From NCBI GenBank assembly GCA_016875095.1, contig VGSG01000023.1, positions 1-44,483 on the forward strand: a stretch of DNA of 44,483 nucleotides. Reading direction: 5' to 3'. Position numbers and translations under genes: made by a program. Under the pieces are notes generated by a model. That model was not told the DNA's origin, ran no database searches, and saw nothing but the letters and a program-made list of their open reading frames with translations. Positions 1-1,459 of the stretch are shown here, in pieces. The DNA comes from Deltaproteobacteria bacterium. GTDB taxonomy: Bacteria; Desulfobacterota; Desulfomonilia; Desulfomonilales; Desulfomonilaceae. How positions within the stretch are numbered: position 1 is the first letter of the stretch; each line of letters starts with the position of its first letter.

Positions 1-1
1 G

Positions 2-1291
2 GATGCGCCTGAACACTGTTCCGTAAGACCAGGCGGCGCCCGCGATCATGAGTTCCGCGACTTCCCGATGGCGCGGACTCATCTGGTTGAGGAGATATTC
101 CGCGCGTTCGCGGCTCCACCACGCCGAAGACTCGTCAGGTAGATCTTGCAACACGTCCGGCAGGCTAGCCCTTTTCTGGGGAGGCTTGGGCAGCTTGCGG
201 ATCTTCCAGCGTATTTCAGGATGTTTCTTGATGAAATCGACGAGCCTTCGCGGCCTGAGTTGATCCTCCTGAAGGCTCATGGCGTCAAGCATGCCGGGCG
301 CTTGATACCCGTCGTTCAACACCGCGACGACGAAAAGCCGTTCCCGGCTTTGTGGCACGAATTGCGCCGCGTCCAGAACAAACGCGTCAATGCTGTAACC
401 GAGCCTGTTGAGCGCCAGCATGGCTTCGGATAAGTCACGCCCCTTGTGTGATGTAAGGAATCCCGTGACATTCTCCAATAGTATGAGTGGCGGCCGCCGG
501 CCTCCCATACCCTCAATAGCGCTCACCAGGCCCCAGAAGGCCGAGGATTGTTTGCCTTTCAGCCCGCGTCTGGCGCCTGCCACCGAAAGATCGTTACACG
601 GAAACGAAGCCGTGGCGAGAGTCACGCACGGGATCTCATCGGAACGGATGTGGTGGATGTCTCCCAAATGGAAGAGACTCTCTTCTTGAAAGTGGGTGTC
701 GTACATTTCCTTCTTCTTGGGGTCCACGTCATTGGCGTACGCCACGGTCCAACCCTGACGCTCCAATGCCATACGGACCAGGCCGATCCCGGCGAAGAAC
801 TCCGCGAAGGTCTTGTATGGAAGATGAGCCAGCGGAGTCGGCGGAATCTCGTTGCGGGCCGCAGCCAGGGTCATCTCCACGCAACGATCCAGGTTCTTTT
901 CGATTTCACTCGCCCAGAACCGCAGAACTCGCCACCCGCTTGCAAGCAGCCTAGCGGTGGACACGCAGTCTCGATTCATGTTCCCGCGTATCTTTTCCAG
1001 CCAGTAGCTTATGGATTGAGATTTTGAAAACTGCTCTTCAAGCGAGGCCAAGTTACGTCGAACGCTCTGACCCCCATGCCAATAGTCACCATCCACAAAG
1101 ACCGCTAGGCGCTTCGCCGGAAAGACAATGTCCGGTTTTCCGGGGAGTTCGCCATGATGGAGCTTGTATCGCAAACCCTTGGCCCAGAGCGCCTGACGGA
1201 AGGCCAACTCCGGCGTAGTATTTCGAGAGCGAACGCGGCGCATTATGTTTGAAATTTCTTCAGAACTACGGGGTTGGGAGCACGCTTTCAT
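2..1291 (-). CDS. Vsr-type endonuclease fused to C5-cytosine DNA methyltransferase (C-terminus beyond window)
   Basis: One uninterrupted minus-strand frame of 430 codons runs off the left edge. Residues 1-140 look like a very-short-patch-repair endonuclease: RSRNTTPELAFRQAL near residue 21, KPDIVF at 52-57, VDGDYWHG at 67-73, YWLEKIRGNMNRD at 96-108 and GWRVLRFW at 119-126. Residues 160-430 are a C5-cytosine methyltransferase: motif I FAEFFAGIG (162-170), motif IV SFPCNDLS with presumed catalytic Cys232, motif VI LLENV (271-275) and motif VIII QSRERLF (314-320). The target-recognition region and last motifs are missing because the window ends. The start ATG follows a GAGAGGG ribosome site and an in-frame TAA lies just upstream, so no longer N-terminus is possible. 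The usual zinc-binding Cys of Vsr (GCFWH) is replaced by GDYWH. By family knowledge the enzyme would methylate cytosine and nick at T:G mismatches made by deamination of that base. The target sequence is unknown. Confidence 0.9.
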   Translation of the reverse strand, partial: MKACSQPRSSEEISNIMRRVRSRNTTPELAFRQALWAKGLRYKLHHGELPGKPDIVFPAKRLAVFVDGDYWHGGQSVRRNLASLEEQFSKSQSISYWLEKIRGNMNRDCVSTARLLASGWRVLRFWASEIEKNLDRCVEMTLAAARNEIPPTPLAHLPYKTFAEFFAGIGLVRMALERQGWTVAYANDVDPKKKEMYDTHFQEESLFHLGDIHHIRSDEIPCVTLATASFPCNDLSVAGARRGLKGKQSSAFWGLVSAIEGMGGRRPPLILLENVTGFLTSHKGRDLSEAMLALNRLGYSIDAFVLDAAQFVPQSRERLFVVAVLNDGYQAPGMLDAMSLQEDQLRPRRLVDFIKKHPEIRWKIRKLPKPPQKRASLPDVLQDLPDESSAWWSRERAEYLLNQMSPRHREVAELMIAGAAWSYGTVFRRI

Positions 1292-1459
1292 GATCCCTCT
1301 CTTACCACACCGGCATGGGCGAATCGAGAGCAAACCGGCAGGCGCGCTGTTCTTTTTCAACCCGAATTTCGCGCTTACCTTCGGGAAAAATGGTCTCTGC
1401 CCCGCGACGCTCTGACCGCTTTTGCATCTGTCCTGGTAGGACGATATGGAGGTGTTCAG

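What the first reader, a model, noticed from the sequence alone, without database searches (positions are those of the whole stretch)
2..1291. Vsr mismatch endonuclease fused to its C5-cytosine methyltransferase
Vsr and C5 methyltransferase are normally two adjacent genes. Here they form one reading frame, with no stop between the Vsr part (residues 1-140) and methyltransferase motif I (residue 162), and an in-frame stop just upstream of the ATG. Making the mutagenic methyl mark and repairing its deamination product in a single chain would tie the two activities together. The Vsr part also lacks the usual Cys of the GCFWH zinc motif (GDYWH here), so its zinc site may differ.
Basis: partly seen in the sequence, partly recalled or inferred. 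Interest (0 to 1): 0.7.

Follow-up and report, generated by a model that had tools for sequence, protein, structure and literature searches.

The report
Single-chain mismatch nickase and cytosine methyltransferase
One bacterial gene joins an enzyme that puts methyl marks on cytosine to the repair nuclease expected to correct the mutations those marks cause; the joined form is real, occurs in at least 17 genomes of several phyla and arose at least twice, so it is an uncommon but conserved variant of a known partnership.

Summary
The fusion is real. The window is a whole contig whose left end cuts the gene; the rest lies at the start of contig C34 (368-bp overlap, 2 mismatches). Joined, it encodes 539 aa: a Vsr-type nuclease (about residues 9-136), a variable linker and a complete C5-cytosine methyltransferase. 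It is no sequencing artefact: 16 further complete fused frames occur in the same family and in Poribacteria, Chloroflexota, Nitrospirota, Bacillota and Planctomycetota. A second, independent Vsr-MTase fusion accompanies HpaII-type restriction genes. Eight of the 17 have a DUF4928 gene directly downstream, very likely a type II restriction enzyme; here it is absent. Best reading: the modification-plus-repair arm (V~M) of a DUF4928 R-M system, kept as an orphan like Dcm/Vsr. Catalytic Vsr residues are intact. Zinc ligands are missing, as in many Vsr relatives; the accompanying Asp-for-His64 change is known from functional Vsr enzymes. Activity, target site and the benefit of tethering are untested. 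I found no description of the fusion in the open papers searched.

The parts
2..1291 (-). fused vsr-MTase gene, residues 1-430 of 539; the last 109 residues are on contig C34 (L004, gene end at 697)
884..1267 (-). Vsr-type PD-(D/E)XK nuclease domain, residues 9-136; catalytic E28, D54, H72, D108 present
1076..1090 (-). GDYWH motif (residues 68-72), aligned with GCFWH of E. coli Vsr; zinc ligands replaced (D69, G74, S76, S128)
   Evidence: alignment with 1cw0
812..883 (-). inter-domain linker, residues 137-160, poorly conserved (21-46% identity)
2..811 (-). C5-cytosine methyltransferase domain, residues 161-430 (motifs I to VIII and the start of the target-recognition region); motifs IX and X are on C34
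593..601 (-). catalytic motif IV, Pro-Cys-Asn (residues 231-233; most C5 MTases have PCQ), invariant in the four fused relatives aligned
1294..1302 (-). agagaggga, likely ribosome-binding site before ATG 1291
   Evidence: sequence
1..368 (.). overlap with the start of contig C34 (L004 1-368), 2 mismatches

Best explanation
The gene encodes a single-chain C5-cytosine methyltransferase with its own mismatch-repair nickase (V~M). The MTase part methylates one cytosine in a short, still unknown, site. When that 5-methylcytosine deaminates, the T:G mismatch is nicked next to the T by the N-terminal Vsr part, and DNA polymerase I and ligase restore C:G (very short patch repair). The Vsr part belongs to the zinc-less type with Asp for His64, and a known enzyme with that Asp cuts T:G in any context, so tethering to the MTase may supply its site selectivity; it also means the two activities cannot be inherited or lost separately. 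Ancestrally V~M was the modification-and-repair component of a type II R-M system whose restriction enzyme is DUF4928. In this genome the restriction gene is absent and V~M persists as an orphan, like Dcm/Vsr. Shown: the fusion, its conservation, intact catalytic residues, the link with DUF4928, and its absence here. Inferred: both activities, T:G specificity, loss of the restriction gene from an ancestor, and the benefit of tethering.
For: Both domains score over curated cut-offs. Vsr catalytic residues E28, D54, H72 are invariant in 133 Vsr domains and present here; MTase motifs I, IV, VI, VIII, IX, X are present and conserved in fused relatives. Sixteen further fused frames; Vsr part 50-65% and MTase core 54-70% identical to ours while the linker is 21-46%, so both halves are constrained. 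Fused MTases group with 100/99 support and their Vsr parts form one group (SH-aLRT 89). DUF4928 is directly downstream in 8 of 17, resembles EcoT38I and is a REase_II in PADLOC; absent in the own genome while the same search finds it in six others. Asp-for-His64 Vsr enzymes are functional, and V.NgoAXIII cuts T:G in all contexts (PMC12907096; PMC6116569).
Against: No activity has been measured for any fused member. The target site is unknown. The zinc-binding residues that stabilise E. coli Vsr are missing. The predicted model (pLDDT 71) does not fix how the two domains sit, so acting on the same site is not shown. The own genome could hold an unrelated restriction enzyme that was not searched for; 2.6% contamination and 202 contigs leave small gaps.
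Confidence: 0.72

Rival explanations
1. The join is an assembly or sequencing artefact: a missed stop or frameshift between two ordinary adjacent genes.
For: MAG; the contig ends inside the gene and the two overlapping contigs differ at 2 of 368 bases. Adjacent separate vsr and MTase genes are common in relatives.
Against: Sixteen independent assemblies, including different phyla, have the same unbroken fused frame. The contig break is in the C-terminal half, far from the domain junction.
Confidence: 0.01
2. The Vsr-like domain is not a repair enzyme but a restriction nuclease: a single-chain R-M protein that cuts unmethylated or foreign DNA.
For: Vsr shares the PD-(D/E)XK fold with restriction enzymes; single-chain R-M enzymes such as BcgI exist (PMC4081073); in Caulobacter a Vsr-like protein harms cells that lack the methylation (PMC12907096); here no separate restriction partner was found.
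Against: Eight fused relatives have DUF4928, and all three proteins of the second fusion kind an HpaII-type enzyme, directly beside them, so a separate restriction enzyme already exists. The domain passes the Vsr model's curated cut-off and keeps the Vsr-type residues.
Confidence: 0.12
3. The Vsr part has lost nuclease activity and only helps the MTase bind DNA or fold.
For: Zinc ligands lost; no activity known for any fused member.
Against: Catalytic residues invariant in all fused members compared, and a level of conservation close to that of the MTase core. L046, an MTase nested among the fused ones but without the fused domain, has a separate Vsr gene of the Cys type nearby, as if the activity were wanted.
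Confidence: 0.08
4. The fusion is kept mainly because Vsr damages cells that lose the methylation (a stabilising or selfish element, as proposed for Caulobacter VsrA/ScmA).
For: PMC12907096; orphan fused genes occur in about half of this family's genomes, mostly without DUF4928.
Against: In a fusion both activities are lost together with the gene, so gene loss is not punished; only point loss of MTase activity would be.
Confidence: 0.07

Closest known systems
E. coli Dcm / Vsr (V.EcoKDcm) very short patch repair
   Same: C5 MTase plus T:G nickase of the same families, here also apparently an orphan without restriction enzyme
   Different: Two separate genes; E. coli Vsr has a zinc site and His64 and reads its own sequence; here one chain, no zinc ligands, Asp67 in place of His64
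V.NgoAXIII (Neisseria gonorrhoeae) and Caulobacter VsrA
   Same: Vsr type with Asp in place of His64; V.NgoAXIII is active and cuts T:G in all contexts (PMC6116569, PMC12907096)
   Different: Stand-alone proteins; VsrA is not even linked to its MTase ScmA
DUF4928 type II R-M systems with separate MTase, Vsr and DUF4928 genes (plasmids H4-H6; L013, L046, L047, L049-L053)
   Same: Same MTase branch and the same three functions in one locus
   Different: Vsr is a separate gene, in the nearest ones of the Cys (zinc) type; here fused and DUF4928 missing
HpaII-type systems with fused Vsr-MTase (L055, L057, L058)
   Same: Same domain order, Vsr N-terminal to a C5 MTase in one chain
   Different: Different MTase branch and restriction enzyme (RE_HpaII): an independent fusion
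Type II enzymes with R and M in one chain, such as BcgI (PMC4081073)
   Same: Nuclease and methyltransferase joined in one polypeptide
   Different: There the nuclease is the restriction enzyme; here it is a Vsr-family, mismatch-type nuclease

Membership tests
Vsr mismatch endonuclease | sequence match above the curated cut-off of the family model | tested here: met
   PF03852 83.1 bits (cut-off 27), TIGR00632 111.9 bits (cut-off 97.85)
Vsr mismatch endonuclease | active-site residues E25, D51, H69, D97 (E. coli numbering) | tested here: met
   E28, D54, H72, D108 in the alignment with 1cw0; E28, D54, H72 invariant in 133 domains; residue list from PMC12907096
Vsr mismatch endonuclease | His64 | tested here: not met
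   Asp67 here; functional Vsr enzymes with Asp at this place are reported, so it does not define the family
Vsr mismatch endonuclease | structural zinc site (C66, H71, C73, C117 of E. coli Vsr, from my own knowledge) | tested here: not met
   D69, G74, S76, S128; also missing in many separate Vsr relatives, so it marks the E. coli-like branch rather than the whole family
Vsr mismatch endonuclease | nicks DNA at T:G mismatches | not testable with these tools
   needs a biochemical test
C5-cytosine DNA methyltransferase | conserved motifs I, IV (PC), VI (ENV), VIII (QxRxR), IX and X in order | tested here: met
   FFAGIGL, FPCN, ENV, QSRER, LLTPRE, GFGDAV present in the joined 539-aa protein and conserved in relatives; motif IV is PCN, not PCQ; model of relative L038 matches M.HhaI at Z 21.0
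C5-cytosine DNA methyltransferase | methylates DNA cytosine at C5 | not testable with these tools
   needs methylation mapping
DUF4928 type II restriction-modification system | MTase belongs to the MTase branch of that system | tested here: met
   MTase tree; PADLOC MTase_II PDLC03243 E 1e-77
DUF4928 type II restriction-modification system | DUF4928 restriction gene in the locus or genome | tested here: not met
   no PF16280 in the own genome and no remnant beside the gene; so this is an orphan V~M, not a complete system

The most novel reading that the evidence does not exclude
A single-chain writer and repairer of 5mC: a Vsr domain with no zinc site and little sequence reading of its own takes its targeting from the target-recognition region of the MTase it is tethered to, so that repair is confined in cis to the sites the enzyme itself makes mutable.
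Probability: 0.3. Interest if true: 0.65.

Novelty: new variant of a known kind. Interest (0 to 1): 0.42.

Why it matters
5-Methylcytosine is a mutation hot spot, and bacteria that keep C5 methyltransferases pay with C-to-T mutations at their sites. A conserved fusion, made at least twice, of the enzyme that writes the mark and the nickase family that repairs its decay argues that the two work on the same sites and gain from being inherited as one. It offers a natural protein for testing whether tethering narrows a broad T:G nickase to one sequence. The work also ties Pfam DUF4928 to type II restriction enzymes and shows such genes broken in two genomes beside an intact V~M gene.

Tried and rejected
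Artefact (frameshift or lost stop): rejected because of 16 further fused frames. Restriction partner in the own genome: PF16280 absent, and tblastn of four DUF4928 proteins against the window and C34 gave one weak match only (E 0.003 at 9295-8969, far from the gene). Fused forms in viruses: none of the 30 viral loci fetched has Vsr and MTase in one frame. Plasmid candidates for fusion: L148 (Rhizobium) has two separate genes and L149 no annotated fused gene. Sequence match of DUF4928 to solved structures: none; only the fold search and PADLOC helped. MTase target: not identified, as no characterised relative with a known site was in reach. Literature searches for the fusion: none found, but subscription journals, REBASE and InterPro were not covered. 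The fused model (relative L038, pLDDT 71) is too weak to place the two domains relative to each other. Caveat on the zinc census: the collection scan pattern itself favoured DG[DE], so only the loci from the phylum survey give a fair share, roughly half.

Full report
What was checked. The window is the whole of contig C23 of a 4.7-Mb, 202-contig assembly. On its minus strand a frame starts at ATG 1291 and runs off the left end after 430 codons. Its N-terminal part matches Vsr (PF03852 E 1.3e-23; TIGR00632 E 2.1e-32, above the curated cut-off) and the rest matches C5-cytosine methyltransferases (PF00145 E 6.3e-36; TIGR00675 E 2.3e-38). A search of the own genome with PF00145 gave two pieces: the window's, covering profile positions 2-176, and one at the start of contig C34, covering 149-320. 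The first 368 bases of C34 repeat the window's left end with two mismatches, and joining them gives a 539-aa protein that ends after motif X. The two mismatches suggest that strain variation broke the assembly. ATG 1291 is nevertheless the best start, with agagaggga right before it and relatives starting at about the same place.

Is it an artefact? No. A survey of 395 genomes of the same phylum found three further full-length fused proteins (G330, G102, G025; 57-63% identity). A scan of the GTDB genome collection found eight more full-length ones at 53-64% identity, in Poribacteria (two), Chloroflexota (two), Nitrospirota, Bacillota (Dethiobacter), Planctomycetota and one unplaced bacterium (L038-L045). 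Within the window's own family five more complete fused frames were found (G397, G398, G399, G400, G403), and G395 seems to have one in two contig pieces, so about half of the 18 genomes of the family carry it. A script confirmed that in each complete case Vsr and MTase lie in one frame without a stop. With the window's own that makes 17 complete fused genes of one kind.

Evolution. In a tree of 77 MTase domains the twelve fused MTases then in hand fall in one group with support 100/99, which also contains one split system (L046). In the Vsr tree the same twelve form one group (SH-aLRT 89). So the halves have moved together. The Vsr partners of the nearest split MTases (L046, L047, L049-L053, L056) are of the Cys (zinc) type and lie elsewhere in the Vsr tree, so the fused Vsr seems to come from another Vsr lineage rather than from simple loss of a stop between those neighbours (inference). 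A second set of fused proteins, in gut Clostridia and Treponema (L055, L057; L058 cut at its contig end), sits on a different MTase branch and is followed by an HpaII-type restriction enzyme gene (PF09561, E 2.2e-121 for L055 and 9.1e-131 for L058; L057 by likeness of sequence only). Vsr has thus been joined to the N-terminus of a C5 MTase at least twice.

Surroundings. In the relative L007 the next gene is DUF4928 (PF16280, E 1.7e-98). Eight of the 17 fused genes have DUF4928 directly downstream (L007, L038-L042 and L044; G403). In split relatives DUF4928 lies with the MTase and Vsr in several gene orders, also on plasmids. A DUF4928 model (mean pLDDT 84) matches the EcoT38I restriction endonuclease best (Foldseek E 5.4e-4, probability 1.00; VIA Z 10.2 with rmsd 16.4 over 257 residues and Z 9.5 with rmsd 7.1 over 251, followed by other restriction enzymes such as AspBHI at Z 7.3; the large rmsd means the domains are set differently). 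PADLOC calls it a type II restriction enzyme (PDLC03543, E 2e-51 and 7.6e-55). DUF4928 is therefore very likely the restriction partner. It was not found in the window's genome, while the same search finds it in six other genomes. Downstream on C34 there are instead ferredoxin-like, hydrolase-like and formate-dehydrogenase-like genes (my reading of the translations). Upstream are a small protein with a weak DUF7336 match, a glycosyltransferase and an RNA-recognition-motif protein. In L038 the DUF4928 gene is broken into two frames and in L040 it has lost its middle: restriction genes decay there while V~M stays open.

The Vsr part. Aligned with E. coli Vsr (1cw0, E 1.4e-13), E25, D51, H69 and D97 correspond to E28, D54, H72 and D108. 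E28, D54 and H72 are invariant in 133 Vsr domains. C66, H71, C73 and C117 (the zinc ligands, from my own knowledge) correspond to D69, G74, S76 and S128, so the zinc site is gone. This is not peculiar: roughly half of the separate Vsr proteins found in the phylum survey have D or E in place of Cys66. Asp in place of His64 is reported in functional Neisseria Vsr enzymes and in Caulobacter VsrA (PMC12907096), and V.NgoAXIII cuts T:G in all nucleotide contexts (PMC6116569). Among fused proteins the Vsr domain (50-65% identity to ours) is nearly as conserved as the MTase core (54-70%), while the linker is not (21-46%). Both halves are therefore under constraint.

Mechanism. The best-supported reading is a methyltransferase that carries its own T:G nickase: methylation, deamination, nicking and short-patch resynthesis at the same site. 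The families, their residues and the link to a restriction enzyme are shown here. Both activities, the target site and the value of tethering are inferred. The most interesting inference is that a nickase of a broad-context type gains its selectivity from the MTase it is bound to. The restriction-nuclease reading is less likely because eight fused relatives, and all three of the second kind, already have a separate restriction enzyme gene beside them. The addiction reading proposed for Caulobacter fits poorly, because a fusion loses both activities together.

Novelty. The parts are known, and linked Vsr and C5-MTase genes are textbook. The single-chain form was not found in the open literature searched, but REBASE, InterPro architectures and most subscription papers were not searched, so it may already be catalogued. 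I rate it a new variant of a known kind, of moderate interest.

Noticed in passing
L055:5989-8512, L057:5989-8570, L058:1-2326: A second, independent Vsr-C5 MTase fusion in gut Clostridia and Treponema, each followed by an HpaII-type restriction enzyme gene; in L055 and L058 another C5 MTase gene comes next.
   Followed up: partly
L041:2222-3229, L039:7604-8599 and relatives: DUF4928 (PF16280, function unknown in Pfam) models as a restriction enzyme closest to EcoT38I; the usual PD-(D/E)XK catalytic lysine is not obvious (conserved GDF...HVT instead).
   Followed up: partly
L038:7615-8580, L040:2476-3018: DUF4928 genes next to intact fused V~M genes are broken: split in two frames in L038, middle lost in L040.
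   Followed up: no
L162 (G397:C90) and L152 (G397:C24): One genome of the same family has both an orphan fused V~M gene and a separate Vsr-less MTase beside a complete DUF4928 gene.
   Followed up: no
window 1-368 and L004 1-368: Two contigs of the assembly overlap by 368 bases with 2 differences, one of them Ser/Pro-changing; strain mixture probably broke the assembly there.
   Followed up: yes
L145:3016-6375 (viral contig): 1120-aa open frame with a uracil-DNA-glycosylase domain, a family-B polymerase with exonuclease, an intein-like part and a Vsr-like domain; the last two look like an intein with a Vsr-like homing endonuclease.
   Followed up: partly
L012:1432-3423 and L036 (G385:C18): MTase 64% identical to the window's but cut short in its frame, with an Mrr-type endonuclease gene, DUF4928 and a Cys-type Vsr in the same locus.
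   Followed up: no
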